A stretch of 45,168 nucleotides of DNA from IMG/VR virus record IMGVR_UViG_3300032296_003995, positions 1 to 45,168 of that record; one strand, 5' to 3'. The DNA is from a virus. Every line of letters starts with the position of its first letter. Position 1 is the first letter of the stretch. Under the pieces are notes generated by a model. It saw nothing but the letters and a program-made list of their open reading frames with translations, had not been told where the DNA came from and searched no databases. Shown one piece after another: positions 3,594 to 40,000 of this stretch. A program made the translations under genes and the position numbers.

Positions 3594-4045
3594 CCGACCT
3601 CCCGCCTCTCCGGTCCTTTCAAGACGTTCGGGACGTCCTCTCGAACACGATCCACCAGGTCCGGGAGCGAGATCTCACCGGGGACCAGGCGAAGAGCATC
3701 CTCGGGCTCCTCACGCTCGCCTCCGAGACGCTCGTCAAGGAGGATGCCATCAACCGGGCGGTCCTCGCCAACACGTCCCCCACACCGGGCGTGCGCTCCG
3801 AGACCACCACGCCGGCCCCTGCAGCCTTCGCGCCGGGCTCCTTCATCCTCAACCTCAACGTCGGGGACCAGAACCGGCCTCACCACGTCCCCGTCTTCGA
3901 CCTCGATCCCGCGCCACAGGCCGAGATCGTCGAGCACGTCCCCGACGTCTCCATCGCCGAGCACCTCGACAAGGCCAGGAAGGACGCCCACGGCAAGAAC
4001 AATGACCTCCGCGCCCGTCTCCTCGCCCGGAAGACCCACCCATGA
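3590..4045 (+). CDS. Small protein preceding the large terminase; possible small-terminase role
   Basis: This 151-residue protein overlaps its neighbours by ATGA at both ends. The first 60 residues (FQDVRDVLSNTIHQVRERDL then AKSILGLLTLASETLVKEDAI) are predicted helical. They match a pattern I associate with small phage proteins encoded beside terminases: an I-x-VR-x-x-x-L stretch followed by an A-x-x-I-x-x-L helix. The C-terminal part is low complexity and ends in a charged helix. Position suggests the small terminase subunit or a packaging accessory, but no helix-turn-helix is clear, so function stays open. Confidence 0.75.
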   Translation: MTDLPPLRSFQDVRDVLSNTIHQVRERDLTGDQAKSILGLLTLASETLVKEDAINRAVLANTSPTPGVRSETTTPAPAAFAPGSFILNLNVGDQNRPHHVPVFDLDPAPQAEIVEHVPDVSIAEHLDKARKDAHGKNNDLRARLLARKTHP

Positions 4046-5925
4046 GCGCCGCGACCAAGCCGATCCCCCTCCGCGAGCAGCTTGACACCGCGGCCGGGCA
4101 GGCCGAGTTCGCCAAGAAGGTCACTGACCCCGCCTTCCTTGCCCAGCTCAAGGCCCTCTTCCTCTCCCCGGAGTGGGCGCTTCGCAATCTCCTGGCCGTC
4201 CAGGGGCAGACCGAGTCCAAGATCGTCTCCTACGACCCGGACGAGGCCTCCTACTCGCTCCAGCAGGACATGATCCGCTACTGGGCGAACCCTCCGCGGA
4301 ACATTGACGGCTACACGAAGTGGTTCGTCGCCCTCGGGCCGCGGCAGATCGGCAAGTCGACCGTTCCAGAGCTCCTTGGGACCCACGCGGTCATGTCCTC
4401 GCCTGGCTGGGACCACGTCTGCGAGGCCGACACGGACAAGCGGGCGTCCTACCTTCATCAGCGGGCGCAGATCGCCTACGCCGGATGTCCGGCTTTCCTC
4501 CGTCCGCCGCAGGTTTCGACCAAGGAAGTGCGGCAGCTCACCCTTCGACACGGCCAGACGACCTCTCGGCTTCGCTCACGGACGGCCGGCGCGGAAGCAT
4601 CGGGCGTCGGCGAGACTCCTACGTCCTACCATGCGTCCGAGATGGGGTTCTGGCCGAACTTCGCGATGTCCTGGACGCTTACGGCACCCTCTTTCCGCAA
4701 TAACAAGAACGCTCGAATCATCGCCGAGTGTACTCCGGTCCCTCCGTCGATGGCTTCCGGCGAACAGTGGCGCGAGTTCTGCCAGGCAGCGCGCTCTGCA
4801 GGCCCCGAAGATCGCCTCTTCTACCGTTTCTATCCCTTCTGGGACTCCAGAGTCAACGCGCGGACCTGGGTGTCGACCTGGACGCTCGATTCTGACGAAC
4901 AGAACCGGATGAACAAGTACGGACACCTCGGTTTGACCAAGGCAAACCTCGCTTTCCGGCGTGAAACCATCAAGACGGACGAGGAGATCCGCAAAGACCC
5001 CCGCCTCTTCGACCTCTGGTATCCCTCAGACGACCTGACCTGCTGGATCTCGGCAGGAACGGGAGTGATCCCAGAGAACTGCCTCGCGAAACACCTCAAA
5101 TCGGATGATCTCATCGCCTGGAAGGGGGACGAGACCTACATTGAGTACGAAGAACCCCAGCCTGGGGTCCTTTACGTCATCGGCGTGGACCCCTGCGGCT
5201 TCGCGGCGCGAGATCATGCGGCGTTTCACGTCCTAAAGGTCTGGAGAGGGGAGTGGACCCAGGTCGCAGTCCTCGCCGGGCACATCGATCCCGTCACCCT
5301 CTCGCGAAAACTCGAGGAAGTGGGTCTCCGGTACAACAAGGCGCTCATCGGCATCGAGAGCAACGGCGTCGGACAGGGTCCTCTGACCTATCTCGTCCAG
5401 AACAACTACCCGAACCTCTACTACAAGGCCGCCGGGAACCCCGGCCTCCCCTCTACGGGCGCTTCACAGCAGGGACACCTCGCAGATCTCACGACGGCGC
5501 TCATGGACGAGCTCGTTCTCCACGATAAGGAGACGGTTGAGCAGCTTTCTACGTACAAGAACGACAAGACCTTCGAGGCGGCGGTCTCCACTGAGGCGCT
5601 ACACAACGCAACCGCCATCTTCTCCGAATCCGGCTCGGGTCGGCGGAAGAAACACCACTGGGACCGCGTCAGCGCGCTCCTGATCGCCGTCCAGATGGCC
5701 AAACAGGTCCCGCAGAGGTTCCGTCCCTCCGAAGAAGCGGGCGGGCCTGGGTTTCTCGATGCATCTAAGAGGGTCAGGCGGCGGATCGACGGCGAGAACC
5801 CCTCTTTCGCCGACGAGATCGCGAAACTGACCCCTCAGCAGAGGGCCGTCTACGACGCGCTCCGTTCCCGCTACCAAGGCGGCAGCACCTGGGGACCGAG
5901 ACGAGGATCTAGGGCCTGGGGTTGA
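4042..5925 (+). CDS. terL: Terminase large subunit (packaging ATPase/nuclease)
   Basis: The 627-residue product is the DNA-packaging motor. The ATPase domain has a Walker A GPRQIGKST (residues 99-107) and a Walker B-like segment ending HASEMGFW with the likely catalytic Glu near residue 200. The C-terminal RNase H-like nuclease domain shows the expected three acidic clusters: VIGVDP (near 384), IGIESNGVG (near 436) and HHWDRVSALLIAV (Asp near 538). Length and order match tailed-phage large terminases. It pumps DNA through the portal, encoded next, and cuts it. The start overlaps the previous stop (ATGA). The stop overlaps a TTGACA that could be a -35 box for the portal gene. Confidence 0.93.
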   Translation: MSAATKPIPLREQLDTAAGQAEFAKKVTDPAFLAQLKALFLSPEWALRNLLAVQGQTESKIVSYDPDEASYSLQQDMIRYWANPPRNIDGYTKWFVALGPRQIGKSTVPELLGTHAVMSSPGWDHVCEADTDKRASYLHQRAQIAYAGCPAFLRPPQVSTKEVRQLTLRHGQTTSRLRSRTAGAEASGVGETPTSYHASEMGFWPNFAMSWTLTAPSFRNNKNARIIAECTPVPPSMASGEQWREFCQAARSAGPEDRLFYRFYPFWDSRVNARTWVSTWTLDSDEQNRMNKYGHLGLTKANLAFRRETIKTDEEIRKDPRLFDLWYPSDDLTCWISAGTGVIPENCLAKHLKSDDLIAWKGDETYIEYEEPQPGVLYVIGVDPCGFAARDHAAFHVLKVWRGEWTQVAVLAGHIDPVTLSRKLEEVGLRYNKALIGIESNGVGQGPLTYLVQNNYPNLYYKAAGNPGLPSTGASQQGHLADLTTALMDELVLHDKETVEQLSTYKNDKTFEAAVSTEALHNATAIFSESGSGRRKKHHWDRVSALLIAVQMAKQVPQRFRPSEEAGGPGFLDASKRVRRRIDGENPSFADEIAKLTPQQRAVYDALRSRYQGGSTWGPRRGSRAWG

Positions 5926-5956: not shown

Positions 5957-7870
5957 ATGGACCAGTCCGCCCGCTCCGGCCCCCCGCAGAACGAGGTCCG
6001 CCCTGCCCCGCAGATGGCGGACAAGTTCATCGTCGACCTCGTTGAGCGCCATCAGCAGGCGGTCGAGAGGCATCTCCTGCCCTTCTACTCGAAGGTCCAC
6101 CTCGCCTACGTCGGCAAGACCGCGATGGACGAGGCCGGCGGCATCAAGACCGCCCTCCTCGACCAGGGGACCAACGACGAGGACGAAGGCTACCTCCAGG
6201 AGCCGATTCTCTATCAGCTGATGGACACGCTCACGGCGACGGTCACGCCGCCGACGCCCGCGGTCGAGATCCTCCCGCAGACCAACGCGGTGACGCAGAG
6301 CTCGGCGCAGACGGCGCAGCACCTGGTCAACAACGCCTTCCGGCGCCGGCGCCTGACCGTCGATCTCGGCCGGATGGTCACCCTCACGGGCCTCTTCGGG
6401 ACGTCCTACATCAAGACCACCTGGCAGGTCAACGAGAAGCTCCCCCGCTTCGACGTCATCCACCCCAAGGACCTCTTCGTCGACCCTCTCGCGAAGAAGT
6501 GGGAGGACATCCGGTACGTCATCCACCACACCGTCATCCCGGCGGAGGTCGTTCGCCTTCGGGTGGAGAGCGGGGAGTACTCCGCCGAGGCCGCGGAGAA
6601 GATCCTCAAGGGGGCGTCCCCGAACACGCGGGCGAGCATCGACCCGATCGGCCGGGTCTACACGGCGGACACCGGAAGCATCACCGTCCGCGCTTCGGCG
6701 CTCACCATCTCGGACGACGCGACCCAGCACGAGCAATCCCTTGAGGACGTCTGCGACGTCTACGAGGTCTTTGACTTCGTTCATGAACAGTTGATCCACG
6801 TCGCCGGGAACCAGCGCAGCGGCGCCCGGGTGGTCGTGGCGCGGACGGATCTGCCCTATCGGCTGGTCCAGAACCCGTTCTCCATGCTCCGGTTCACCGA
6901 CAGCCTGGACAGCCTCCGCGGCGTCAGCATCGCGCAGCTCGTCACGCCGCTCATCGAGCAGCGGCACCGCATGACGACCATGCGCCTCCGCCACGCGGCG
7001 TCCATGATCCCGCGGACGCTCATGCGCGCCGACGTCGTCAAGGACCCCGAGGAGGTCCAGGCCAACATCCTGCAGGCAGCCACGCCGGGGCACATCATCC
7101 CCGTCACCATGCAGGGGAGCGGCGTCCAGCACCTCCCGCTCGAGGCCCTCTTCTGGTCGACGCCGGCGCCGCCGCTCCCGCCCGACTACGACAAGGCGCT
7201 CAACGACCTGGAGGAGGCCATCTATGCGACGGCGGGGATCTCGCCCCACATGCGGGGCCAGGTCGGCGAATCCCGTGTCGCGACTGAGCTCGCCCTTGCG
7301 GATGCGTCGAACCAGACGCGACAGGGGCGCATCTTCCAGGCTGTCGGCTTCCTCATTGAGGATCTCGCTCGGAAGGTCCTCGATCTCTACGCCGAGTTCC
7401 TCGCCGACCAGGGTATGTACCTGCGAATCGACGGGCGGATCAAGGAGTTCGGCCCTGACGAGCTGCCCTTCACACCGGGGATCTCGACCATCGGGTCTCT
7501 TGACGTGAGCGTGACCCCCTACTCTCCGCAGGAGCAGACGCGGGCGGTTCTCGCGCAGAAGGTCATGACCTTCATCCCGCTCCTCCAGGGAATGAACCCG
7601 CAGTCGCTCGATACTCAGCGGATTCAGGAGTACCTCCTCTCGGTCGCAGGTCTTCCTCACGACCTGGTCAAGACTCTGGAGGCGCAGGCCGAAGAGGCCG
7701 AGGCGATGGCCCAAGCCGCGGAGCAAGAAGCGGCTGTCAAGGGCGCGTCAAGCGCCGGGTTGCCTATCCCTCCCGGGACGGTTACCAAGGGCGGAGATAC
7801 TCAGGCTACCCAGGCCGCGGGATCTCCTCGCGCTCAGGGTGCGATGATCGGCGGCGCCGGAAAGCGGTAG
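5957..7870 (+). CDS. Portal protein
   Basis: The 637-residue protein directly after the large terminase fits the portal, the dodecameric ring at one capsid vertex through which DNA is packaged and to which the tail attaches. The sequence has the usual look: a helical N-terminus, then YQLMDTLTATVTPPTPAVEILPQ, GLFGTSYIKTTWQV and DVIHPKDLFVDPLAKKWED, as in podoviral portals. A long C-terminal helix follows (TLEAQAEEAEAMAQAAEQEA, about residues 575-595). GAGG lies 12 bases before the ATG, so the ribosome binding site is weakly spaced. The call rests on order, size and pattern rather than on a catalytic motif. Confidence 0.82.
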   Translation: MDQSARSGPPQNEVRPAPQMADKFIVDLVERHQQAVERHLLPFYSKVHLAYVGKTAMDEAGGIKTALLDQGTNDEDEGYLQEPILYQLMDTLTATVTPPTPAVEILPQTNAVTQSSAQTAQHLVNNAFRRRRLTVDLGRMVTLTGLFGTSYIKTTWQVNEKLPRFDVIHPKDLFVDPLAKKWEDIRYVIHHTVIPAEVVRLRVESGEYSAEAAEKILKGASPNTRASIDPIGRVYTADTGSITVRASALTISDDATQHEQSLEDVCDVYEVFDFVHEQLIHVAGNQRSGARVVVARTDLPYRLVQNPFSMLRFTDSLDSLRGVSIAQLVTPLIEQRHRMTTMRLRHAASMIPRTLMRADVVKDPEEVQANILQAATPGHIIPVTMQGSGVQHLPLEALFWSTPAPPLPPDYDKALNDLEEAIYATAGISPHMRGQVGESRVATELALADASNQTRQGRIFQAVGFLIEDLARKVLDLYAEFLADQGMYLRIDGRIKEFGPDELPFTPGISTIGSLDVSVTPYSPQEQTRAVLAQKVMTFIPLLQGMNPQSLDTQRIQEYLLSVAGLPHDLVKTLEAQAEEAEAMAQAAEQEAAVKGASSAGLPIPPGTVTKGGDTQATQAAGSPRAQGAMIGGAGKR

Positions 7871-17797: not shown

Positions 17798-18268
17798 ATG
17801 CGGGCATACGACGACATTCGGACCTTCTCCCCTCGGCGCCGCGAGAAGGCGCTGGTCATGGAGGACATGGAGGCCGCCCGCTCGGGCAAGCAGGTCATGT
17901 CGGAGAGCGAGGTCGAGCAGGCCGCCTCCGCTGGGCAGATGGCCGCCGCCTCGCAGGCGGCGCAGATGCAGGCCGGCGTCGCGCGCGAGGCGATGGCCGG
18001 AGGCCAGCCCGCCTACGCCGGCCAGGCCGCGAAGATGAACGCGGAGATCGCGGGGCAGGCTGCAGACGCAGCGGCCGTGTCGCGCTCCAACGCCAACGCG
18101 CTCAACGCGCAGCTCACGGCGCAGCGGAACCAGGCGGCCCGCGCGGCGCTGGCCATGCGCTCGCAGCGGCGGAACGACAACATCTGGAAAGGCGTCGGCG
18201 CGGCCACGCAGGTCGCGGCGGCTGCCGCGAGCGACGGCCGCATGTTCGGCACCGCCCTCCCCGAGTAG
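17798..18268 (+). CDS. Probable internal virion (ejection) protein, small
   Basis: The 156-residue product is Ala/Gln/Met-rich and almost wholly helical (QMAAASQAAQMQAGVAREAM), with no Cys that I can see. It lies just upstream of a long coiled-coil protein and a giant protein. The small-medium-giant order mirrors T7 genes 14-15-16, whose products sit inside the head around the portal and are ejected to build a conduit across the envelope. The best candidate for a membrane-contacting stretch is near the C-terminus (GVGAATQVAAAAASDG). The assignment is from order and composition. Confidence 0.6.
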   Translation: MRAYDDIRTFSPRRREKALVMEDMEAARSGKQVMSESEVEQAASAGQMAAASQAAQMQAGVAREAMAGGQPAYAGQAAKMNAEIAGQAADAAAVSRSNANALNAQLTAQRNQAARAALAMRSQRRNDNIWKGVGAATQVAAAAASDGRMFGTALPE

Positions 18269-18277
18269 GAGCAGATC

Positions 18278-19939
18278 ATGGCGACTCGACGCGAAGCTCT
18301 GACCGCAGCGGCCCACAAGGTGCTGCTCAGCAACCCCGGCCTCTACCGGGACATCACCAACGTCCAGGCCCTCCGGCGCGAGCAGGTGAGCCGCGCGGCG
18401 CAGCGGCTCCTCACGCTCAACGACCCCGGGGCAGGCGCCGTCGAGCGCGCCTTCCAGGACGCGGGTGAGATGTCCAAGGAGCTCCCGAAGCTCCTGGACA
18501 CGAAAGCTGACCTGATGGGCAAACTGCAGGAGACTGTGCAGGAGGCCCTCAAGCGCAAGAATCAGTTGGACGATGGCGCGGTCAAGATCATCGTTGCAGG
18601 TATCGGCTCCGAGGGGCAGACGAAGCAGGCGTACATCAACGGGCTGAGCGCGCAGGACGTGGCAGGTATCAAGGCGCGCGTAGAGATCGAACAGGCTCAG
18701 GGCGATCTTACGCGGGACACGCTCAGCGCCGTCGGCGCGGCAAGCACGCCAGAGGCTCTGAAAGCAGCCGACGAGAAACTCTCGCAGTTCCGCGCGCTCT
18801 CTGCAGCGGGAGGGTCGAACCCCGACACAGGAACTCAAGAGTTCTTCAACAGTCTCTCGACACAAGCAACGGCGCAGATGCTCGCCGCCGCCGCCAAGAC
18901 CAACGACCAGGGCCTGATCACCAGCATCCAGACCGGACTCGAGACTGCGGGTAAACTCGACGCCGTGGTTGGTTACCTGAGCGACGTCGCTCAAGCCAAC
19001 AACGCACTTCGCGCGCGCGCCGATGGGGTCAGCAACGAGACCCTGATCGCCGGCCCCGAAGGAGTCACGCAGGCAGATCGGCAAAGGAACGCCTTGAAGG
19101 CCGGGCTCTTCGCCATGAGCCCCTCGCGGGCGCAGAGCCTCAGAACGGCGTGGGACATCCTCAGCAAACCCGAAGAGTTCGCGCAGTTGAACGACACCAT
19201 CAAAGGTGCGGTGCCTCCTGACTTGAAGAAGACTATCGATCAGATCGACGACGCCATCGACAAGGCGAGTCGCGCCCGGGATCTCGCGTCTCCGACGGAG
19301 GTCCGAGAGGCCATTCGTACCAGCGAGGGTGTCGTTGAGACCGCCAAAGAGGAGCTCGCCAAGGCAGGCGTCGAGGATGATGGTCGCCTGATGGGTCTCG
19401 GCGCAGCGGTTCGGCGCGCTACCCGGCAGCAGCAACGGGGTCTGGTGAAGGAGATCGGCGAGGAGGGCGATGTCAAGACCAGGCGCCTCTCCATGATCAA
19501 GGAACAGGCGCTTGCTCGGAAGAACAAGGCCAACTGGGCAGAGAAGCCGCTCACCGAAGACGAGGCCAACGACCGCAAGGGAGATGCTGTCAAGTCGGCC
19601 AACGACGCTTCTCCGAACAAGAAAGCGAACGTCCCTCTGGACTTTGATATCGACGGGCTCCCCGAGGATGCTCCCGATCCGGAAGATAAGGCCGCCCCTG
19701 GCGTCGCCCCTGGTCAACCCCCGGCAACGGAGCAAACGCGCAAGGCCGCCCGCGAGGCGCGGGACACCGCGATCGCCTCGGCCACCGCGTCTCGCCGGAG
19801 AGAAGGCGTTCTCGACTCGCTGCGGAAGTACCTGCCCCAGCAGGCGCCCGCACCCGTCGAGGAGGAAGAGGAGCAGGTCACCTTCACCAGCCCCGGCCCG
19901 AAGAAGAGGCCGCCCGGCTCGCGGTTCACCTTCGTTTGA
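18278..19939 (+). CDS. Probable internal virion (ejection) protein, medium, coiled coil
   Basis: The 553-residue product follows a GGAG ribosome binding site. It is almost entirely helical with heptad-like stretches (residues 60-110, 125-180, 300-400), no Cys and no Trp-rich beta regions. The C-terminal 100 residues are Pro/acidic low complexity with a run of Glu (EEEEEQ) and a basic end. The length is comparable with T7 gp15, and the position before a giant gene supports an ejectosome role. No enzymatic motif is seen. A free-standing helical assembly protein cannot be excluded. Confidence 0.6.
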   Translation: MATRREALTAAAHKVLLSNPGLYRDITNVQALRREQVSRAAQRLLTLNDPGAGAVERAFQDAGEMSKELPKLLDTKADLMGKLQETVQEALKRKNQLDDGAVKIIVAGIGSEGQTKQAYINGLSAQDVAGIKARVEIEQAQGDLTRDTLSAVGAASTPEALKAADEKLSQFRALSAAGGSNPDTGTQEFFNSLSTQATAQMLAAAAKTNDQGLITSIQTGLETAGKLDAVVGYLSDVAQANNALRARADGVSNETLIAGPEGVTQADRQRNALKAGLFAMSPSRAQSLRTAWDILSKPEEFAQLNDTIKGAVPPDLKKTIDQIDDAIDKASRARDLASPTEVREAIRTSEGVVETAKEELAKAGVEDDGRLMGLGAAVRRATRQQQRGLVKEIGEEGDVKTRRLSMIKEQALARKNKANWAEKPLTEDEANDRKGDAVKSANDASPNKKANVPLDFDIDGLPEDAPDPEDKAAPGVAPGQPPATEQTRKAAREARDTAIASATASRRREGVLDSLRKYLPQQAPAPVEEEEEQVTFTSPGPKKRPPGSRFTFV

Positions 19940-19988
19940 CCTGAGAGCGCGGCACGGATAGGGGCGGGCACACAAGAGGTGGCCGCCT

Positions 19989-22900
19989 ATGCCCGCTGAG
20001 AAGAAGCCCGTCTCTCTCGAGAACATCTACAAGAAGAACCTCGAAGAGACGTACGGCAAGGTCCCCAGTGCCGAGGAGATCTACACCGAAGGCATGACTG
20101 CGTTCGGTGAGAGCGCCGCAGCCTACAAGAAGGTCGGCGAGGATCTCGACGCGCTTGCGGCGCAGAAGAAGGCGGAGAAGGCCGCGACTCAGACCGAGCA
20201 GGCCGCCTTCGACGCGGCGCGCACGGCAGGTAGCGACCGCGCTCGGATGGCAGGCACCTCCCCCGGCACCAAGGCTGCCGCGGCCATGCTCGAGTCCGTG
20301 GCCGCCGGCGCTGGCGCCGCTGCAGGGGGCGCGCGCCCCGAGCCCGCGGAGGCGGCGCCGGCTGAGACCTCGTTCTACGAGAACAAGGACCTCTCGCCCG
20401 CGGAGCGCGCTCGCGCCCGAGAGGCGGCCCTCGCCTTCGACGTGGCCTTCCGCGCCATCGAGCAGGAGGAGAACGAAGAAGCGAGCCCCGTGGACTGGGT
20501 CGCGTCGTTCTTGCCCTGGTCGGACCAATCGACCGTCGCCCCCGGCGTGCCGAACGGCCCCATCGCGCGCGCCTACGGCGGCGACGACCCGGCCTACAAG
20601 GCCATCCAGAACCCCGACGAGCGCAACCGCATCCTCGGCATGGTTCGGGAGATCCTGGACGAAGAGGGCGGCGTCGAGCTCTGGCAAGGGACCGACGCGA
20701 ACGACAAGGACGCCTACATCAACCGCAAGATCATCGAGGACATCCGTCTCGGCCCGAACGAGGAGAAGGTCGCGGCCCTCTACTCGGTCTTCGACAACGC
20801 GACGGACAAGCAGTTCGACGCCTCCTCGACCCTCAGTCGTCTCCAGAAGGCGTACGCCTCTGACGGCGAGCGTGCCTATCGAGAGGAGCGGGGACTCCCC
20901 CCGGAGCAGCGCCTGGATAAGGCTGAGGTCGACCGCATCAACGCGGACGCCTTCTCCAAGGCCGCCGCAGACGTCAATCGGATCAAGACCCTCTCCCTGC
21001 CGCACGTCTTCGTAGACACGGGCGCGAGCGACCTCGTCGCCAAGTACATGAAAGACGAGGGTTCTCTCAACGCGGCGGAGCGGGTCAAGGCCCGTACCTT
21101 CGATGCGCTCGGCCTGTACCCGCAGCAGCTTGACGACATCTACAACCAGTCGACCGGCGTGGGCAAGGCGCTCCCCGGTCTGCTGATCGGGGCGACCTCT
21201 GCGGGCCGCGCGCTCGAGGTCCTGAGTCTGCAGGAGCAGGTGGCTGCGCAGGTCGAGGTCTTCGCGTCCAAGGTGAACGACGAGATCGCCAAGGCGCAGG
21301 ACCCGAACGCCCCGACGCTCGGGGAGACGGCGACCGCTTTCGGCAAGGGCGCGGCCTCGGCGCTCAGCACCTCCGTCGGGCCCCTGCCCGACATCCTCCA
21401 GGGCGTCTTCGGGGACGAGGACTCCGAGGCCTTCGCGCGCGAGGCGGACATCCGCCTCCTTGAGGCCGCGTCGGACAACCGGGACTTCTTCGACACGGCG
21501 GCGTTCACGCTCCCCGTGTTGGCGGCAGCTCCCTTCGGCCGGGATGCGCAGGCCGAGGTCCTCGTCGACGCCCTCGAAGTGCAGAACCTGTCGAAGTTGG
21601 CGGCCTTCTTCGCCGCCGTCGTTCTGCCCGACACGTCCCCCCTGGGCGCGACGGCCTCGCTCTCGCGCAAGGCGGCGTCGAGCGTGGCACGCTCCGCTCG
21701 CTTCCGGCAGACGGCGAAGATCTGGTCGGACATCGAGCGCGTCATCTCCGAGGCGGCCACGCCCAGCGAGGCCATCGAGGCGGCCAAGAAGATCAGCCTG
21801 GCCGAGGGCATGGTCGTTGAGAGCCTGCTGATGCGAGAGGAGGCCCGCAACAACATCTCGAACATCGGGCGCACCCTCGGGGGCTTGAGCGACCAAGGCG
21901 CGCCCCGGCGCGGCGTCAACTTTAGCCAGGAGGTCATCAACGCCGAGGCCACGCTCCGGTCCCTGATCGAGGGCAAGGCGTCGCCGGACGTCATCAACGC
22001 GCAGAAGAAGCTCATCCAGGACCTGCAGGAGAAAGAGGCCGCGGAAGCCGAGGCTGTGCTTGCGGAGAAGGCCGGCGACGTTCGTATCTACGAGGACGTG
22101 CTCGACGCCGGTCTGCGCCAGACGGATGACGAGGCCCTTGGTGAGGCTGTCGGCGCCGTCGCCGGCGCGGATAAGGGCAAGGTGGCCAAGCTCGCGGATG
22201 AGAACGAGGTGGCGAAGCGAGTGCTCACGCGGCACCCGGAGAATCTGCGGGCCCTGGACGAGGCGACCACCAATGCGGGGGCCAGCGACGAGCAACTGCT
22301 CCGCGCCCGGCAGGCGATCTCGGAGATCGCCTCGGGTGAACGGAGCCGTGTGCTCCAGCAGGAGGCGGCGAAGTACGAGGCCCAGGCGGCCAAGAGAGAG
22401 AGCGACTCCGTGATCGACCAGGTCAAGGAGCTCGACGCCCTCAAGAAAGCGGTCGGTGAACTCGGCGACCGCATGGCTGCACTCGGCAAGGCATCTCCCG
22501 AGGCCAAGGCCTTCGTAGACTCGGTGCGCGAGACGATGAAAGCGCGGGCGCGGGCGACCGAGGCGGAGGCTGAGGTTCTCCGGCTGCGTCGAGAGGTGCT
22601 CGACCTCCCCGAAAGCCAAGTTCTCGATGAGATCAAACGCATCGAGGGGATTGATGCGGCGCAGCGCAGTGCCGCCGATGTCGACGCCCTGCGGCGTTTC
22701 AAGGCGGCCGTGTCGGATAAGGGTTCGGCGCGGGTCCCGACGGCCGGGTTGTTCCGGGCGCAGGAGGCAGCCAAGGCGGCCAACGACCTGCTCGACGTGG
22801 CCACGGCAGCGCAGCGGGCCGCACGCAAAGGTCTCGACCCTGACGCAGCGAAGGAGGCCATCTCCATCGTCGTCAAGATGAAGAAGCTCGCCCCCGATGG

Positions 22901-25900
22901 TAAGAACCTCGAAGACGTTGTTCGGGAGGCGGCAGACAAGGCGCGGGTTGCATCTCTCGCGAAGAGCATCGCGCTGACGCAGAAGGGAGCTGCCGCGGCC
23001 TTGCGGAAGATGGACGACCGCGCCACGCGCCGCGAGATCTTGGCCTTGACTCGCTTCTTGGCCAAGAACCCAGAGCTCCTCGAGAACAAGGAGGTGGTCG
23101 AGCAAGTCAAGGACATCCTCAAGAGGGTCAAGTTGTCCGATGCCGAGAAGGCGGACGTGGCGCGCGGGATGTATAAGGCGGCTGGTGATAAGGTCCCTTC
23201 GCTCGGCGCTTCTCTCGGCTCCCTCAGCCGGGGTGCTCGGAAAGTCGGGCAGATGTCCGCGTACATCAAGTGGCGGCAGATGGCGCAGAGCACCGTCACG
23301 CGCCTCAAGGAGGCGTCTGAGAAGCTCGCGAAGAACAACGACGTCTCCTGGGGCGATCTCGGTTGGCGCACCGGAGACCCCCGCAAGGTCGTCCAGGCGC
23401 GGCAGAAGGCCGGCGCGGCGGTGGAGCAGGCCCTGCGCGGGCTGCAAGGGAGTGATGATCTCGGGGGTGCGTTCGCCGCGGCGCGGAAAGCTCTGCAGAA
23501 GGCGTTCCCCGGAGCGCAGACCAAGGAGCTCGACAAGCTCGCGACCCGGATGGACACGGCCATCGCTGGTGCTGAGGACCCGAAGGTCGACGTACGCACG
23601 CTGCAGATCGCCGCGCAGGCGGACATCGACGAAGCCGTGAAGAAGCTCCTCTCTGCTGACGAAGGCATCGTGCTCACGGCGATGCAGGCGTCGTGGACCC
23701 AGCGGGCGCTCAAGTACCAGATCAAGCAGATCATGGACCCGATGATGAGCTACGTCGGCTCGTCTTCGCAGGGTCTGCGCAACGTCTACCGCGCGACGCG
23801 CGGCATGGTCGAGATGTATACGGCGGGTCTCGACGGCGCGGTTCGTCGAGGCAAGGAGAAGATCGCCGCCGCTGTGAAGAGCGGTGGGTCCGAGACGCGC
23901 GAGCAGGTGTTCAACGTCCTGCGCCGAGAGATCAGCGACTTCCTCGGTTCCAGCAACGTCGTGTCCGAGCGAGGTGTTGCGGTCGGCGGGGTCTCCATCT
24001 TCGACCGCGCGAAGCGCGCGCTGGTGACGGACGGCCCGGCGCCGCGCGAGACGCCGGCGCTGCCCACCGAGAAGGCCGACCTCCTGTCCGCGGCCGAAGA
24101 CAAGTCTGCTGTCAAGGGCATGTCTGCTGAGGAGGTGGCGAAGAGCACTGTTCGCCTGGAGAACATCGCCAAGGCCGCGCAGGAGAAGTACGACAAACTT
24201 CTCCTCAAAATCGACGCGCTGGAGGCCAAGGTCCGCGACGCAGCCGCCGCTCCGCCCGCCGACATCGACCCGAAGGTGCAGAACGAACTGCTCGGCAACG
24301 TCGAGGATCTCCGGCGAGCCCGCGATGCGGCCAAGCAGGAACTCGACGAGGTCGAGGGACGTGACCTCCAGGACTTCTACGCAGGCTCGGATCTCGCCGG
24401 CGAGGTCACCAAGAGGCAGTCAGCGCAGGAGGAGATCAAGAACATCGTCGATGAGACGAAAGTGGCCAAGGCTGAGGTCGACGCAGCCGAGAAGCAGCTT
24501 GAGGCGCTCAGGGCGCAGCGGTCCGGCATCAACCGGAGGACCCTTGGTGCGTTCAAGGTGCGCCAGGACCCGGAGAACCTGCGGTCCCTGCTGAGCAAAG
24601 AGACGGCGGAGAGGGTTGACCGTGCTGAGGAGGCCCTCGCCTCCGCACTCGACGAGGACGAGGTCGTCCGTGCTGCCATCCGTGATCGGGCCGCCGCTCT
24701 CCCCAAGACGAAGGAAGAGATCACGCAGATCGAGAAGGCCGCCCAGGGCGCAAGGGAGCGCCTCGCGGATGCGCAGGCCCGCTACGCCGCCCTCGGCGAG
24801 GGGCCCCAGCCCGGCAAGAGCTCGACGGCCTGGCGCGCTTCTCGGACGCGGGCCAAGGCCCTTGTCGACAGCGCAGCCGAAGATGTGCGCTCCGCCGAAG
24901 ACCGCATCCAGGGGGTCATCGACGACGCCGTCGACGCTCTCGTCTCCAGCGACAAGAAGGTCGCGGCGGATCTCGACCGGGTCGTGAAGGCAGCCCGCCG
25001 GGCGCGGGAGTCCTACGATAGTGCGCTCGGCGTCGCAGACGGCGAGATCGCCAAGGCGCGTCGGGCCCCCGTGCTCGCGTCGCCTGATGAGGTGAAGGCG
25101 GCGCAGAAAGTGCTCGACGACCAGATCGAGCAGGTTCGCGCCGCGGCTCTCGCCCCGGCGAACAAGAAGGTCAGCGACCTCGCAGCCGCGCAGAAGAAGG
25201 CGCAGAAGGTCGTCGACGACGTCGGCAAGAAGGTCGACAAGATCATCAACGACGATGCCGAAGCTGCGAAGGTCTTGGCTGAGATCAAGAAGAAGGCCGT
25301 TGCCGAAGCTGCTGATAAAGCCGACAAGGCCGCAAAGGCGTTCTTGGCAAAGGAGAAGGACGTCGCCGCGATCATCAAGGCCGCCGATGACCTTCTCGCA
25401 CGACGGGACGAGATCACCGAAGGTGCGAAGAAGGCGCAGGCCGAGCTTGACCAGATCAAGGCCGACGACCTCGTCTCCAAGGCGGAGGCTGAGTTCCTGT
25501 CGAAGAAGGCGGATCTCGACGGCTTCGTCGACCGCGTGCGCCTGGAGCGGGAGCGGATGGCTGCCGCGGCCCGAGAGGTGGCGATCCGCGAACTTCGCGA
25601 GCCCGGCGCGGTTGGCTCGGCGCAGCGGCTCGCCGCCGAGGAGCCCGAGGAGCTTGACGAGGTGCTGGTGCGCCTCGGCATGTCCGTCTGGCTGGGCCTG
25701 CAGTCGGCCCCCGAGACCCTGCAGAAGGCGGAGCTCCCGGGCCTGGCCTACCGCTTCGCGCGCGAGGCCTTGTCCGAGAGCGTCGACTTCGACGACTTCC
25801 TCGGGCGGCTGACCTCGAAGTGGGCCGGCAAGGCCGCTGCATCGAGCGCCGTGCTCGAGCAGGACGCAAAGTCGATGGTCTTCGCCGCCGCGGCGCTGGT

Positions 25901-28244
25901 CGAGGGAGCTGCCCGCGACGTGGCCATCGACGCGACGCTCCGCGAGGGCATCGCGCTGGTGGACCCGATGGCCGCCAAAGCGATGAACCAGATCCAACGT
26001 GTCGCCTCCGGCGGGCTCAAGATGACCGACCTCAAGAAGAGCCACATCGAGGATGCCCTCCTCGGCCTTCTAAAGATCGGCGGGCTCATCCAGCGGACCG
26101 TCGAAGGCTCTGCTGCCACTCCCGAGGGGATGGGCAAGAGCAAGGCTGAGCGTCCGCTCGGCGTTGCGCTGGCTGCTTCTCGGGACATCCAAGTGACGAG
26201 CCAGAGCGTCTACTTGCCCAAGCAGCTTATCGAGGGTCTGACGACTGAGATTGATCTTCTCCGTAAGGAGGCGGACCTCCTGCCTTCGCAGAGTCCGAAC
26301 ACGCTCGTCAACAAGTACCTGATCAGCACGGTACGCGACATGATGCACTTCATGCGCACCACGCTCCTTATCGGGTTCGGGATCAACCTCCTCGGCTACC
26401 GGGCCAAGACCGTGCTCGGCGACTCCGAGCAGGTCTTCGCCACGCAGGGGGCCGGGGAAGGGGCGCAGATCCTGGCGCGCGGCGTGACGCAGATGATCCC
26501 GCGCAAGGGCGGGCAGGTCACGGCGGCGGTGCAGAGCGTGGACCTCGCGGCGCCCGTGCGGCGCGGCATCGACTGGGCGCGCACGCAGGGGCTCCCTGGC
26601 CCCGTGAAGGACGTGATCGAGAAGGTCGGCAACCCCGTCGCGGACTGGCTGCGCGGCGCGAACAGCCCGACCCTCGGCAAGTTGATCGCCACGTACGCTA
26701 CCAGCCCGAACGAGGAGCTCGTCCTGGGTAAAGTCGCCAAGACCCGCGCCGAGTGGCTCGAAGAGGCGGCTCGTCAGGGAGCCTTTGACAACAACGTCGA
26801 GGCCGGACTGCGGAAGACCATGCGCGACGTGCGGGACCAGATCAACCTGGTGACCACGACCCGCATGTCGTGGGCTGAGGCGAAGGAGGCCGCTGCCGAG
26901 CGCGGCGTGTCCCCCTACACGCTCTTCATGCAGCGTCGCCCCCTGCGGGGGGACGAGGTCCTGCAGCGGCCTGGCATGTTCGAGACGGTGCGTGCCTGGG
27001 CGGTCGAGCATCAGCGCGCTCTCGAATCGCGTGAGGCGGATGTTCAGCGCACGTCTCGGCAGCTCATGTACTTCCGCCTGCGCGAGAAGGGCATGAGCGA
27101 GCAGGAGGCCGGCGAGGCGATGCGGCGCGGTCTGCTCGATTGGTCCTTCGGGCTCAACAGCGGCATGGCCAAGATCGTCGCGTACCTCCCGTTCTGGCGC
27201 TATCACCTGCTCTCCTTCAAGCAAGGCTTCCAGCTTCTCTTCGGGGAGGGCAAGACACACAACTTCGACCGTGCGCAGAAGTTCCTCCGCGCCTACGACG
27301 GCTTCTACGAAGGCACCCCGTCGGAGGACGAGATCTCCCTGATCAAGGAGCGTGCGCGGCAAGTGGCGCGCGAGAGTGGGCGGAGTGAGGAGGCCGCGGA
27401 TCTCGAGGTCAGCCAGTTCCTTGCGGCGAAGCAGTTCGCTATGGGAAACGTGCCGCGCTTCATCCAGATGGGCAACCGGCCCTACTCCGTCGAGCACGTC
27501 TCGGGCATCAGCTACGGGGATCTCGGCACGGGCCGCTGGGGCCAGGCCGAGAAGGTCGACGAGGCGCGCCGTGCCTACCGGGACCCGGAGGGGCGCACGA
27601 CCTCGTGGCAGGCGCGGGTGGCCCCGCGGAGCTCCATCGTCGGCGCCCTCGACGCCGCCGCCTCGATGTCTCTGGCGATGGAGTCCGCCTACCACTACGC
27701 GACGGGGGACAAGGAGGCCTCCGAGGCCGCTCTCTACAAGGGGTCGATCCCCTGGCTCGACCGTCTGCCCACGCCTGTCCGTACGATGGCCGAGCAGGCT
27801 ATCTTCCGACTCGACGGGGAGGTCGCTAAGGCCGCTTTCGCAGGCAACCCCAACTACACCGACTACGGTCGCGTGTCTCCGGCCGAGGGTGACCTCGCAG
27901 AGATGCTCGGTATCCCCGTCACCAACACGCTCGATGACCCTCGTCCGTCGGTTCCGAACGACTTCAAGATGCTGTTCTCCTTGCCGATTCTCGGGGTCCC
28001 CTCGCCGCTGGTCTCGCAGGCGACGCAGGCCATCAACGCGGTCTCGTACCAGAACCCGTATCAGTTCGACGACTCCTCGTTCAAGAAGGCCATCGCCACG
28101 CCCTCGGCTATCTGGGGTCTGTACCGCTCCTACGGGTTCGACCCCTCGTTCAATCAGGCGATGGAGGATGCGGCGAAGAAGCGCGGCGCTGATGTGCTCA
28201 TCAAGCGCGCCGAGCGGGGGACCCAAAAGTACAACCCGCGGTAG
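19989..28244 (+). CDS. Giant internal virion (ejection) protein, 2751 residues
   Basis: This is the largest gene of the window. The ATG follows AGAGGTG, with a GGATAGG motif 33 bp upstream. The N-terminal 140 residues are charged, helical and Ala-rich. A largely alpha-helical body follows, with strong coiled-coil stretches near residues 680-960 and 1380-1860. A hydrophobic segment (RTTLLIGFGINLLGY, about 2117-2140) may insert in a membrane. The C-terminal 450 residues are more globular and aromatic (IVAYLPFWRYHLLSFKQGFQLLFG, then VPRFIQMGNRPYSVE), a layout I associate with large phage internal proteins. I see no Cys in the whole chain, no lytic transglycosylase motif and no single-subunit RNA polymerase motifs. 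It would be the T7 gp16 counterpart at twice the size. Confidence 0.7.
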   Translation: MPAEKKPVSLENIYKKNLEETYGKVPSAEEIYTEGMTAFGESAAAYKKVGEDLDALAAQKKAEKAATQTEQAAFDAARTAGSDRARMAGTSPGTKAAAAMLESVAAGAGAAAGGARPEPAEAAPAETSFYENKDLSPAERARAREAALAFDVAFRAIEQEENEEASPVDWVASFLPWSDQSTVAPGVPNGPIARAYGGDDPAYKAIQNPDERNRILGMVREILDEEGGVELWQGTDANDKDAYINRKIIEDIRLGPNEEKVAALYSVFDNATDKQFDASSTLSRLQKAYASDGERAYREERGLPPEQRLDKAEVDRINADAFSKAAADVNRIKTLSLPHVFVDTGASDLVAKYMKDEGSLNAAERVKARTFDALGLYPQQLDDIYNQSTGVGKALPGLLIGATSAGRALEVLSLQEQVAAQVEVFASKVNDEIAKAQDPNAPTLGETATAFGKGAASALSTSVGPLPDILQGVFGDEDSEAFAREADIRLLEAASDNRDFFDTAAFTLPVLAAAPFGRDAQAEVLVDALEVQNLSKLAAFFAAVVLPDTSPLGATASLSRKAASSVARSARFRQTAKIWSDIERVISEAATPSEAIEAAKKISLAEGMVVESLLMREEARNNISNIGRTLGGLSDQGAPRRGVNFSQEVINAEATLRSLIEGKASPDVINAQKKLIQDLQEKEAAEAEAVLAEKAGDVRIYEDVLDAGLRQTDDEALGEAVGAVAGADKGKVAKLADENEVAKRVLTRHPENLRALDEATTNAGASDEQLLRARQAISEIASGERSRVLQQEAAKYEAQAAKRESDSVIDQVKELDALKKAVGELGDRMAALGKASPEAKAFVDSVRETMKARARATEAEAEVLRLRREVLDLPESQVLDEIKRIEGIDAAQRSAADVDALRRFKAAVSDKGSARVPTAGLFRAQEAAKAANDLLDVATAAQRAARKGLDPDAAKEAISIVVKMKKLAPDGKNLEDVVREAADKARVASLAKSIALTQKGAAAALRKMDDRATRREILALTRFLAKNPELLENKEVVEQVKDILKRVKLSDAEKADVARGMYKAAGDKVPSLGASLGSLSRGARKVGQMSAYIKWRQMAQSTVTRLKEASEKLAKNNDVSWGDLGWRTGDPRKVVQARQKAGAAVEQALRGLQGSDDLGGAFAAARKALQKAFPGAQTKELDKLATRMDTAIAGAEDPKVDVRTLQIAAQADIDEAVKKLLSADEGIVLTAMQASWTQRALKYQIKQIMDPMMSYVGSSSQGLRNVYRATRGMVEMYTAGLDGAVRRGKEKIAAAVKSGGSETREQVFNVLRREISDFLGSSNVVSERGVAVGGVSIFDRAKRALVTDGPAPRETPALPTEKADLLSAAEDKSAVKGMSAEEVAKSTVRLENIAKAAQEKYDKLLLKIDALEAKVRDAAAAPPADIDPKVQNELLGNVEDLRRARDAAKQELDEVEGRDLQDFYAGSDLAGEVTKRQSAQEEIKNIVDETKVAKAEVDAAEKQLEALRAQRSGINRRTLGAFKVRQDPENLRSLLSKETAERVDRAEEALASALDEDEVVRAAIRDRAAALPKTKEEITQIEKAAQGARERLADAQARYAALGEGPQPGKSSTAWRASRTRAKALVDSAAEDVRSAEDRIQGVIDDAVDALVSSDKKVAADLDRVVKAARRARESYDSALGVADGEIAKARRAPVLASPDEVKAAQKVLDDQIEQVRAAALAPANKKVSDLAAAQKKAQKVVDDVGKKVDKIINDDAEAAKVLAEIKKKAVAEAADKADKAAKAFLAKEKDVAAIIKAADDLLARRDEITEGAKKAQAELDQIKADDLVSKAEAEFLSKKADLDGFVDRVRLERERMAAAAREVAIRELREPGAVGSAQRLAAEEPEELDEVLVRLGMSVWLGLQSAPETLQKAELPGLAYRFAREALSESVDFDDFLGRLTSKWAGKAAASSAVLEQDAKSMVFAAAALVEGAARDVAIDATLREGIALVDPMAAKAMNQIQRVASGGLKMTDLKKSHIEDALLGLLKIGGLIQRTVEGSAATPEGMGKSKAERPLGVALAASRDIQVTSQSVYLPKQLIEGLTTEIDLLRKEADLLPSQSPNTLVNKYLISTVRDMMHFMRTTLLIGFGINLLGYRAKTVLGDSEQVFATQGAGEGAQILARGVTQMIPRKGGQVTAAVQSVDLAAPVRRGIDWARTQGLPGPVKDVIEKVGNPVADWLRGANSPTLGKLIATYATSPNEELVLGKVAKTRAEWLEEAARQGAFDNNVEAGLRKTMRDVRDQINLVTTTRMSWAEAKEAAAERGVSPYTLFMQRRPLRGDEVLQRPGMFETVRAWAVEHQRALESREADVQRTSRQLMYFRLREKGMSEQEAGEAMRRGLLDWSFGLNSGMAKIVAYLPFWRYHLLSFKQGFQLLFGEGKTHNFDRAQKFLRAYDGFYEGTPSEDEISLIKERARQVARESGRSEEAADLEVSQFLAAKQFAMGNVPRFIQMGNRPYSVEHVSGISYGDLGTGRWGQAEKVDEARRAYRDPEGRTTSWQARVAPRSSIVGALDAAASMSLAMESAYHYATGDKEASEAALYKGSIPWLDRLPTPVRTMAEQAIFRLDGEVAKAAFAGNPNYTDYGRVSPAEGDLAEMLGIPVTNTLDDPRPSVPNDFKMLFSLPILGVPSPLVSQATQAINAVSYQNPYQFDDSSFKKAIATPSAIWGLYRSYGFDPSFNQAMEDAAKKRGADVLIKRAERGTQKYNPR

Positions 28245-28322
28245 CGGTCGTGCTTGCAGGGGCTTGACACGAGGGTTACGCTCGGCCTGTCCCCTACCAC
28301 CCTGATTCCTGGAGCCGAAAAC

Positions 28323-29102
28323 ATGGGCACCCGCACCGACGTCTCTCCACTCAAGCGTTCCTTCGACGGCGAGCTTCTCTCCGTGGGGAAGACGGCCGGG
28401 CGCATCCGCGGCTTCTTCCGCTCCACCTCTACGCCGGCGAAGATCGCGCGTGGCTGCATCATGACGATGAAGAGCCAGCACGCGAACGGCGCCATCATCT
28501 TCGAGCCCGCGCTCGCGGACGGCACCCAGTTCGCCGGCGAGGCGATGCCTGGCGCGCTGTACGTCTTCGTCGGGCCGACCACGGCCGCCGCCACGTTCGC
28601 GCTCGAGGCCATGCGGAACCTGACCCAGCCCTGGGCGTCCGACGCGCTGGTGATCGACTTCGACACCAGTGGGCTCAACAACGGCGATTACATCTTCCTC
28701 CAGGACACCGTCGGGGCGGGCGGCCTGAACATCGGCTCGACCCCCGGCACCCAGCCCGTCGCGGTGGGCCGGGTCCTGGGCGCGGGCGATGCCGCCGGCA
28801 AGGTCCTCCTCTGCCCGACCGAGGCCGCTGCGAGCTACGCGATGGCGTCGAACTACGGGAACGAGGTGGCTAAGGGCACGCTCACCTTCGGCGCTCTGGA
28901 GACGTCCAAGACCGCCACGCTCGGCGCCCGCTACGCCAACGGCGTCGCCATCGTGACGCAGAAGAGCTTCTCCGGCACCCCGACGGCGACCGGCGAGGTG
29001 ACCGCTGCCATCAACGGCTCGGGCGTCCTGACCCTCACCCTCGCCGCCGCGCCGGGCGCGGGCAACGGGCGCGTCTTTCAGTACATGGCCCTCCCCGGCT
29101 AA
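28323..29102 (+). CDS. Probable virion surface/decoration protein
   Basis: The ATG at 28323 is chosen because GGAG lies 8 bases upstream. A TTG further upstream lacks a ribosome binding site. The 259-residue product is Gly/Ala/Thr-rich and beta-prone. A stretch reading GTQPVAVGRVLGAGDAAGKVLLCPT resembles beta-barrel head-decoration proteins. The C-terminus (VTAAINGSGVLTLTLAAAPGAG) looks like an Ig-like or decoration strand pair. It opens the last structural segment after the giant gene. A decoration or fibre-accessory role is inferred. Confidence 0.55.
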   Translation: MGTRTDVSPLKRSFDGELLSVGKTAGRIRGFFRSTSTPAKIARGCIMTMKSQHANGAIIFEPALADGTQFAGEAMPGALYVFVGPTTAAATFALEAMRNLTQPWASDALVIDFDTSGLNNGDYIFLQDTVGAGGLNIGSTPGTQPVAVGRVLGAGDAAGKVLLCPTEAAASYAMASNYGNEVAKGTLTFGALETSKTATLGARYANGVAIVTQKSFSGTPTATGEVTAAINGSGVLTLTLAAAPGAGNGRVFQYMALPG

Positions 29103-29138
29103 GACGGATAGGACACCTCGTCTTGACGGGAGGCTGAC

Positions 29139-29600
29139 ATGATGACCAAGGCGTACCGGCTCCGTGCCACCACCTTCGATACGGGAGGCAGCTCCGCGCG
29201 GGCTGTCATCCCGATCAAGATGGCGCAGGGCATCTTCCTCCTCGAGCAGGTCTACGTCATCCCCGACGTGGTCGGCGCCGGGGCCACGACCTACTCGACG
29301 TGGCTCGGGGCCTACACCTCGACCGGCGACGAGCCGGAGAAGTACGACCCCTCGGTCCGCTTCCTCGATGAGGCCCGCGCGGTGACGGCCGGCACCCCCT
29401 CCGCTCCCGGGCGAGACCCCGCTGAGTGGGTGGCCAAAGGTGTCGGCGTCGGCGACGTCTACATGCCGATCCGGCGCTCCGCTCTCGCTGACGGGACCGG
29501 GAACATCGTCCTGGTCATCGAGTTCGATGCGGGGACGGACCACACCGGGCGCGTCGAGATCGGCGGCACCTGGTCGCCCATCGAACGGCAGGCGATCTGA
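29139..29600 (+). CDS. Unknown 153-residue virion-region protein
   Basis: A GGGAGG ribosome binding site precedes tandem ATG codons (29139 and 29142), and either could be used. The product is beta-prone (FLLEQVYVIPDVV, NIVLVIEFDAGTDHTGRVEIGG) without Cys. The stop overlaps the fibre candidate start (TGATG), so the two are translationally coupled. A small adaptor or chaperone for the next protein is a fair guess. It is preceded by a weak hairpin (29101-29124) with GGATAGG in its loop. Confidence 0.7.
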   Translation: MMTKAYRLRATTFDTGGSSARAVIPIKMAQGIFLLEQVYVIPDVVGAGATTYSTWLGAYTSTGDEPEKYDPSVRFLDEARAVTAGTPSAPGRDPAEWVAKGVGVGDVYMPIRRSALADGTGNIVLVIEFDAGTDHTGRVEIGGTWSPIERQAI

Positions 29601-36114: not shown

Positions 36115-36798
36115 CTATCGGACGGTGACGAGGATAGTGAGTGAGGCGACGAACAGGGCGACATTGAACAGGGTCAGGTAGACAAGAGCCTTCGCAATGA
36201 ACTCCTGCCGACGCACGGATTCTTCGGTCCCGGCATTGAGCCTGACGAGGTCCTTGTACGCCTTGAGGTCCGTGCTCAGTTCGTCGTTCTGCCGTAGGAC
36301 CTCGTCGAGCGACCACTGCAGGTGGTCCTTGTTCCTGAGCGACCGCTGGAGTTCTTCGATGTCGGTGAGCAGCCCTTGGTTCGTGGTCTGCAGGTCTCGG
36401 CTCATGGCGAGCAGGCCGCGGTGCGCCGCGATGAGGCGCTTGACCTGATGCCGGGGTTCGACGTACCAGGAGTTCTCATCGTCGGGCAAGAAGCCGGCGT
36501 CGGCGACGTCGTTCCTGATGTCGTCGAGGAGTAGCCCGTGGAAAGATGCGGCCTCGATAGACATGCTGACTGCCTCTCTCCGCGCGGCATCAGAGCAGAC
36601 CCAGAAGCGCGCCTCGCTGAGGGAGTAGCACCCCTTCACTCCGTAGATGGCCTGCCCTCGCTCCCCGAGAAGGCGAACGACCGCCCACCAGAAAGGGGAG
36701 GGAGTCCCACGCTCGTAGACGCGCCAGTCGTCATTCTGCCCCGCTGCGGCGAGAACGTAGTCCTTGTCTTTGTCCAGCTTCTCATAGATGTTGACCAT
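36115..36798 (-). CDS. C-terminally anchored coiled-coil protein, 227 residues
   Basis: The N-terminal 120 residues form a mixed domain with many aromatic residues (SPFWWAVVRLLGERG, GCYSLSEARFWVCSDA). Residues 120-195 are a coiled coil (LQTTNQGLLTDIEELQRSLR and on). The last 25 residues are a membrane span (ALVYLTLFNVALFVASLTILVTV). Tail-anchored topology would place the coiled coil in the cytoplasm. Possible roles include lysis regulation or superinfection exclusion. None can be shown. Confidence 0.7.
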   Translation of the reverse strand: MVNIYEKLDKDKDYVLAAAGQNDDWRVYERGTPSPFWWAVVRLLGERGQAIYGVKGCYSLSEARFWVCSDAARREAVSMSIEAASFHGLLLDDIRNDVADAGFLPDDENSWYVEPRHQVKRLIAAHRGLLAMSRDLQTTNQGLLTDIEELQRSLRNKDHLQWSLDEVLRQNDELSTDLKAYKDLVRLNAGTEESVRRQEFIAKALVYLTLFNVALFVASLTILVTVR

Positions 36799-36823
36799 GA
36801 TCGCTCCTTCGAGGACAACACTA

Positions 36824-36851
36824 AGCCCTCCCCGGCGGACCAGGGAGGGCT
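36824..36851 (-). terminator. Terminator after the ribonucleotide reductase gene
   Basis: The 9-bp stem AGCCCTCCC / GGGAGGGCT with a 10-base loop lies just past the reductase stop on the minus strand. The downstream tail is TAGTGTTGTCC, only moderately T-rich. Confidence 0.7.
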
Positions 36852-36876
36852 CTGTCGTCAGGGTTCTGTCAGAGCA

Positions 36877-39159: not shown

Positions 39160-39195
39160 GGGTTCCTCGTCCTCGGGGTGGGGCAGAGCAAAGCA

Positions 39196-39223: not shown

Positions 39224-39261
39224 CGAGGGGCGTGGGGCAGACGGCGCAAGAGGCCCGTCCG

Positions 39262-39990: not shown

Positions 39991-40000
39991 GATTCTCTCC

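What the first reader, a model, noticed from the sequence alone, without database searches (positions are those of the whole stretch)
17798..28244. Three consecutive internal-protein candidates with no cysteine, one of 2751 residues
Reading the three translations end to end (156, 553 and 2751 residues) I find no Cys in about 3460 residues, while the adjacent tail proteins contain several. The small-medium-giant order matches the T7 gp14-15-16 ejection proteins, but the last is about twice the size of gp16 and no transglycosylase or RNA-polymerase motif is visible. Lack of Cys would suit proteins that are unfolded and threaded through the tail. This may be an unusually large ejection machine, with a single hydrophobic segment near residues 2117-2140.
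Basis: partly seen in the sequence, partly recalled or inferred. Interest (0 to 1): 0.72.

Follow-up and report, generated by a model that had tools for sequence, protein, structure and literature searches.

The report
Giant cysteine-free phage ejection protein trio
An uncultured short-tailed phage carries three adjacent genes, one for a 2,751-residue protein, whose products contain no cysteine at all; some twenty distant relatives have the same layout, and the known proteins that phages push through their tails into bacteria share the trait, so these are very probably an oversized set of DNA-injection proteins.

Summary
ORFs 17798-18268, 18278-19939 and 19989-28244 encode 156, 553 and 2,751 aa with 0 Cys in 3,460 residues (about 22 expected; P ~3e-10). 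The avoidance is at protein level: other frames of the same DNA are Cys-rich, and Trp is not depleted.

Relatives found through the terminase carry a giant Cys-poor protein in the same place: 21 giants (1,938-3,698 aa, window included) hold 5 Cys in 51,939 residues (519 expected), 23 middle proteins 1 in 17,818 (178 expected), 16 small ones 0 in 2,859. The giants share a divergent ~870-aa C-terminal module. Known ejection proteins behave alike: N4 gp50-52, P22 gp7/20/16, SU10 gp20-24 and T7 gp15-16 have 0 Cys; T7 gp14 has 1.

Best reading: a podoviral ejection set. In size and order it is nearer to N4 gp52-gp51-gp50 than to T7, but vRNAP and transglycosylase domains are undetectable, although the same libraries find them in N4 and T7. 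The 'single hydrophobic segment' claim fails. Virion packaging is unshown.

Giant Cys-free virion proteins are already known (N4; proposed for StenR_269). This is an unnamed, sequence-distinct family of that kind, seen only in metagenomes.

The parts
17798..18268 (+). Small Cys-free protein (156 aa, 28% Ala), candidate outer-membrane-pore ejection protein (position of N4 gp52 / T7 gp14)
   Evidence: homologues by position in 15 relatives, alignment A6, 0 Cys in 2,859 residues. Role inferred from position and size only.
18278..19939 (+). Middle Cys-free protein (553 aa), candidate periplasmic-tunnel ejection protein (position of N4 gp51 / T7 gp15)
   Evidence: 23 positional equivalents with 1 Cys in 17,818 residues; low-confidence all-helical model with a long helix 54-154 and a disordered C-terminus; one relative's protein has a PG_binding_1 domain, E 3.1e-11.
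19989..28244 (+). Giant Cys-free protein (2,751 aa), candidate last ejection protein (position of N4 gp50 / T7 gp16)
25626..28241 (+). Conserved C-terminal module of the giant (residues 1880-2751), shared by all 21 giants
   Evidence: Alignment A4, 14-25% identity to the window; all-against-all BLAST.
27006..27230 (+). Best conserved core of the module (residues 2340-2414; family consensus QxRQRxxLY...EAxxxVxxALYDWKHG...PFYRFxRL)
   Evidence: Most relatives' matches fall here; consensus.
4042..5925 (+). Context: terminase large subunit, the anchor used to find relatives
   Evidence: phrog_2, E 7.4e-15.
5957..7870 (+). Context: portal protein, SU10/T7-like
   Evidence: phrog_332 E 2.9e-20; PF23899 SU10_portal E 1.3e-10, above its cut-off.

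Best explanation
The three genes encode the ejection (internal virion) proteins of a short-tailed phage. Shown here: small-middle-giant order directly after the tail genes, near-complete exclusion of Cys across a deeply diverged clade, and a conserved C-terminal module in the giant. Inferred: the proteins are stored in the capsid and leave through the tail before or with the DNA; the small one forms the outer-membrane exit, the middle one builds a helical periplasmic tunnel, and the giant leaves last, partly unfolded or as a chain of small domains, and reassembles at the inner membrane, where its C-terminal module does the common job and the variable-length N-terminal part may carry cargo. Cys is excluded because a thiol would risk disulfide cross-links during threading and in the oxidising periplasm.
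For: Gene order and sizes match N4 gp52-gp51-gp50, 150/644/3,500 aa, and T7 gp14-15-16. Portal of SU10/T7 type. In 22 of 22 relatives whose region is complete a giant Cys-poor frame lies at the same place. Giants 5 Cys vs 519 expected, middles 1 vs 178, smalls 0 in 2,859. Ejection proteins of N4, P22, SU10 and T7 gp15/16 have 0 Cys, T7 gp14 has 1; SU10 gp20-24 are absent from genome-release particles (PMC9509320). A relative's middle protein has a peptidoglycan-binding domain. Published reasoning ties Cys absence in N4-type vRNAP to passage through tail and periplasm (PMC2784036, PMC3715699, PMC3915230).
Against: No sequence or profile similarity to any proven ejection protein. PDB fold searches give no significant match, with low-confidence models. 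No proteomics. Cys absence is not exclusive to ejection proteins: scaffolds of P22, T7 and LUZ24 and SU10 gp16 and gp18 also lack it.
Confidence: 0.88

Rival explanations
1. The giant is a virion RNA polymerase like N4 gp50, diverged beyond recognition: it is ejected and transcribes early genes. (A special case of the ejection reading.)
For: Same size class, gene order and Cys absence as N4. The same argument was used for the 2,270-aa protein of StenR_269 (PMC10747016). A weak BFVD fold match to a vRNAP segment of Vibrio phage phi 1 (E 0.10).
Against: Pfam and PHROGs recognise N4 gp50 strongly but no vRNAP domain in 19 giants. Profile comparison with N4 gp50 is no better than with its shuffled sequence.
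Confidence: 0.08
2. The giant is a polyvalent-type injected protein: its main job after injection is to act on the host or on host defence, and the conserved C-terminal module is a packaging or delivery part.
For: Polyvalent proteins are giant, encoded near virion genes and inferred to be injected (PMC5512222). The N-terminal part varies greatly in length. Foldseek finds weak similarity of the module to segments named 'large polyvalent protein associated domain' (best E 1.6e-3, TM 0.22). One giant (G020) has a DUF7178 domain.
Against: No enzymatic or LPD domain found by Pfam in 19 giants apart from DUF7178 in one and a marginal Rogdi_lz hit. The strict operon with small and middle Cys-free partners in relatives fits an ejectosome better.
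Confidence: 0.15
3. The lack of Cys is a by-product of biased composition (Ala/Glu/Lys-rich helical or scaffold-like proteins) and says nothing about ejection.
For: Middles and giants are rich in Glu and Lys; several scaffold proteins are also Cys-free.
Against: In giants Trp, Phe and Tyr stay at 0.86-1.03 of background while Cys is at 0.01; Trp codons are not depleted in the window giant. Composition bias alone would not remove one residue about a hundredfold across a diverged family.
Confidence: 0.05

Closest known systems
N4/DEV (Schitoviridae) ejection operon gp52-gp51-gp50 (DEV gp73-gp72-gp71)
   Same: Small-middle-giant order, sizes 150/644/3,500 aa, all three Cys-free; late virion operon
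   Different: No sequence or profile similarity; no vRNAP domains in the giant
T7 gp14-gp15-gp16
   Same: Order and position after the tail genes; gp15 and gp16 Cys-free; T7-type portal family (phrog_332)
   Different: gp16 is 1,318 aa with an SLT transglycosylase domain; none in the giants; gp14 has 1 Cys; no similarity
Kuravirus SU10 ejection proteins gp20-gp24
   Same: Portal of the window matches Pfam SU10_portal; all five ejection proteins Cys-free, last and largest gp24 of 1,473 aa with no known domain
   Different: Five genes instead of three; gp24 half the size; no similarity
StenR_269 2,270-aa putative vRNAP and Zobellviridae internal virion proteins (PMC10747016)
   Same: Giant, Cys-free, predicted helical, among late genes, no confident function by HHpred
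   Different: Sequences not compared here: the accession tried for its relative DES1 is not held; tblastn of the window giant in the phage collection finds nothing
Polyvalent proteins (Iyer et al. 2017, PMC5512222)
   Same: Very large, next to virion genes, inferred to be injected; weak fold similarity of segments
   Different: No recognised combination of enzymatic domains in Pfam

Membership tests
Podoviral ejection-protein set (functional class) | Adjacent genes of increasing size among late virion genes, after the tail genes of a podovirus with T7/SU10-type portal | tested here: met
   same layout in relatives
Podoviral ejection-protein set (functional class) | Near-absence of Cys, as in N4, P22, SU10 and T7 ejection proteins (empirical sign established here, not a formal definition) | tested here: met
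Podoviral ejection-protein set (functional class) | Present in virions and lost on DNA ejection | not testable with these tools
   Needs virion/ghost mass spectrometry
Podoviral ejection-protein set (functional class) | Helical tunnel fold of the middle protein (DEV gp72 / T7 gp15) | tested here: inconclusive
   Model all-helical but pLDDT 58, pTM 0.23; no significant PDB match
N4-type virion RNA polymerase | vRNAP Pfam domains / phrog_2206 | tested here: not met
   Absent in 19 giants; found in N4 gp50 with the same libraries
N4-type virion RNA polymerase | Single-subunit RNA polymerase fold | tested here: inconclusive
   Only the C-terminal 872 residues were modelled (pLDDT 60.7), no PDB match; the N-terminal two-thirds were not modelled; profile comparison negative
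T7 gp16 | N-terminal SLT transglycosylase domain | tested here: not met
   No SLT in any of 19 giants; positive control in T7 gp16 E 1.7e-31
Polyvalent protein | Several disparate effector/enzymatic or LPD domains in one chain | tested here: not met
   Pfam finds none in the window giant and only DUF7178 in one of 19 giants plus a marginal Rogdi_lz hit in one; weak fold hints only

The most novel reading that the evidence does not exclude
A widespread, uncultured podovirus clade uses a giant (up to ~3,700 aa) third ejection protein that is neither an RNA polymerase nor a transglycosylase: a new class of ejectosome component with a common C-terminal module and variable N-terminal cargo, under strict selection against cysteine that reflects a general rule for proteins threaded through phage tails.
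Probability: 0.4. Interest if true: 0.65.

Novelty: new variant of a known kind. Interest (0 to 1): 0.48.

Why it matters
It adds an unnamed family of very large phage ejection proteins, seen only in metagenomes. The roughly hundredfold exclusion of Cys, shared with the ejection proteins checked in N4, P22 and SU10 and with T7 gp15/16, offers a simple sequence sign of proteins that are threaded through a phage tail, and makes a hypothesis so far attached to N4 vRNAP (that Cys hinders passage) testable as a general rule. It also warns that giants labelled vRNAP from size and Cys absence alone, such as that of StenR_269, need not be polymerases.

Tried and rejected
Family scans (Pfam, PHROGs, NCBIfam) and PDB sequence search of the trio: nothing significant. 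tblastn of window and relative giants in 50,697 phage records: no match. The nearest isolate found through a clade terminase is Roseobacter phage CRP-7 at 23%; its gp51 (1,166 aa) is Cys-free too but was not pursued. A viral-contig scan with the giant's last 664 residues found no relatives; anchoring on the terminase did. AF2 models have low confidence. PDB fold searches gave nothing significant; in the VIA-align second look one row was a PhiM1 ejectosome chain (Z 7.1, rmsd 16.7 A, 137 aligned), tied with unrelated helical rows and given no weight. N4 vRNAP and T7 gp16 identity rejected at sequence level. Forced hmmsearch of single known ejection proteins with the module's profile gave only noise-level scores (T7 gp15 4.1 bits). 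Hydrophobic segment at 2117-2140 rejected. A Myxococcales MAG with related terminase, portal and tail genes (L108, L111) shows no protein matching the module, but the scaffold has N runs, so no conclusion.
Full report
WHAT WAS CHECKED. The window is a virus record of 45,168 bases, without tRNA genes, about 66% GC. It has a terminase (phrog_2) at 4042-5925 and a portal at 5957-7870 that matches phrog_332 and Pfam SU10_portal, E 1.3e-10. The three ORFs are exactly as reported: 156, 553 and 2,751 aa, 0 Cys each.

IS IT MORE THAN CHANCE? The other plausible ORFs of the window have 0.63% Cys, so 21.9 would be expected in the trio (P 3e-10, most of it from the giant). The giant's own position-specific base composition predicts 24.5 Cys and 18.8 Trp; it has 0 and 22. 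Its five other frames have 32-124 Cys codons each. The loss is therefore specific to cysteine and to the coding frame.

RELATIVES. The giant finds no relatives by tblastn in 50,697 phage records, and its last 664 residues found none in a pattern scan of viral contigs. The terminase finds three contigs (99, 71 and 69% identical), and an alignment with the latter two reaches 52 loci. In the whole records of 32 of these the giant has a direct match in 12: best G005, 26% over residues 1709-2740; most others only over a ~70-residue core near 2340-2414. Reading the DNA downstream of the tail genes in 23 records shows a giant frame in all 22 whose region is complete enough (G012 ends in the tail genes), preceded by a middle protein and usually a small one. 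A further case lies in a contig binned in a Proteobacteria MAG (L112, 976 + 1,961 aa, both 0 Cys).

CYS IN RELATIVES. In the same stretches other ORFs have 1.00% Cys. Twenty-one giants (window included) have 5 Cys in 51,939 residues (519 expected) and 17 of them have none; 23 middles have 1 in 17,818 (178 expected); 16 smalls have 0 in 2,859. Aromatic residues are not depleted in the giants. The C-terminal modules are only 14-25% identical to the window's, so the trait has been kept through deep divergence, which implies lasting selection.

CONTROLS WITH KNOWN EJECTION PROTEINS. N4 gp50, gp51, gp52: 0 of 4,294. T7 gp15 and gp16: 0 of 2,065; gp14: 1 of 196. P22 gp7, gp20, gp16: 0 of 1,309. SU10 gp20-24, absent from genome-release particles (PMC9509320): 0 of 2,956. 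LUZ24 gp50-52, at the equivalent place: 0 of 1,686. Portals, terminases and most tail proteins of these phages have several. Some scaffolds and tail parts are also Cys-free, so the sign is strong but not exclusive. The absence of Cys in N4-type vRNAPs and its proposed link to passage through tail and periplasm is published (PMC2784036, PMC3915230, PMC3715699). A review of ejection proteins does not mention it (PMC8954989), and my paper searches found no general statement of the rule, in an open-access library only. The closest precedent is podophage StenR_269, whose 2,270-aa Cys-free helical protein was proposed to be a vRNAP from size, helicity and Cys absence (PMC10747016).

WHAT THE GIANT IS NOT. 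Pfam and PHROGs recognise the vRNAP in N4 gp50 and the SLT domain in T7 gp16. In 19 giants they find neither. Profile comparisons of five giant sub-families with N4 gp50/51, T7 gp15/16 and SU10 gp23/24 give probabilities under 1%, like a shuffled control. This is sequence-level evidence; a far-diverged fold cannot be excluded, because the models are weak (pLDDT 61 for the C-terminal module, 58 for the middle protein), the N-terminal two-thirds were not modelled, and PDB fold searches are uninformative. A search of predicted viral structures links the module to segments of other long viral proteins without names in the tables (E down to 1.3e-12, TM up to 0.39) and weakly to 'large polyvalent protein' segments.

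MECHANISM, MARKED BY BASIS. Shown: gene order, Cys exclusion, conserved C-terminal module, variable N-terminal length, and a peptidoglycan-binding domain in one relative's middle protein. From published work on N4/DEV and T7 (PMC12633501, PMC10925440): ejection proteins exit through a ~35 A channel, the small one makes an outer-membrane pore, the middle one a periplasmic tunnel, the giant leaves last, perhaps as beads on a string. Inferred for this phage: the same division of labour; the C-terminal module as the common structural part; the N-terminal part as variable cargo; Cys excluded because disulfides would jam threading or misfold the chain in the periplasm.

N4 is the better size model. 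The giant is ordinary for its clade. The 'single hydrophobic segment' scores 1.14 and is not the strongest. Several relatives have a weakly hydrophobic stretch in the N-terminal part of the giant (residues ~375-930), and the window's strongest (528-546) lies in that range; this was not followed up.

VERDICT. Real, conserved and very probably an ejection set (0.88; the vRNAP and polyvalent rivals are mostly special cases of it, so confidences do not sum to 1). New variant of a known kind: an unnamed giant family distinct in sequence from N4 vRNAP, T7 gp16 and SU10 gp24.

Noticed in passing
L085:12060-16181 (-), residues 539-594 of the middle protein of G015: A peptidoglycan-binding domain (PG_binding_1, E 3.1e-11) sits inside an otherwise unrecognised 1,374-aa Cys-free middle protein, a hint of a periplasmic role.
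   Followed up: partly
L090:2653-13254 (-), residues 1673-1847 of the giant of G020: The only giant with a Pfam domain above its cut-off: DUF7178, E 1.2e-8, function unknown; possible lineage-specific cargo.
   Followed up: no
L107 (crAss001) gp45-gp47, gp49, gp50: crAss001 gp46 (0/534), gp47 (1/2,341), gp49 (1/1,349) and gp50 (3/2,412) are also very poor in Cys; the rule may extend to crAss-like phages.
   Followed up: no
L104:13008-16508 (Roseobacter phage CRP-7 gp51): A 1,166-aa Cys-free protein annotated as tail structural protein lies at the place where the ejection proteins would be expected.
   Followed up: no
L108 and L111 (Myxococcales MAG chromosome CP070713.1, ~1.91-1.95 Mb): Terminase (44%), portal and tail genes related to this clade in a bacterial chromosome scaffold, without a matching giant; prophage remnant or chimeric assembly, with N runs.
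   Followed up: partly
window 36538-39210 and 39232-43331: Long ORFs downstream (890, 290, 334, 277, 247 aa) have no Pfam match; the phage shows no recognisable polymerase among the ORFs scanned.
   Followed up: no
window 19926-23447 (-) and 26070-29543 (-): Antisense open frames of 1,173 and 1,157 aa overlap the giant gene; most likely a side effect of high GC and codon usage rather than genes.
   Followed up: no
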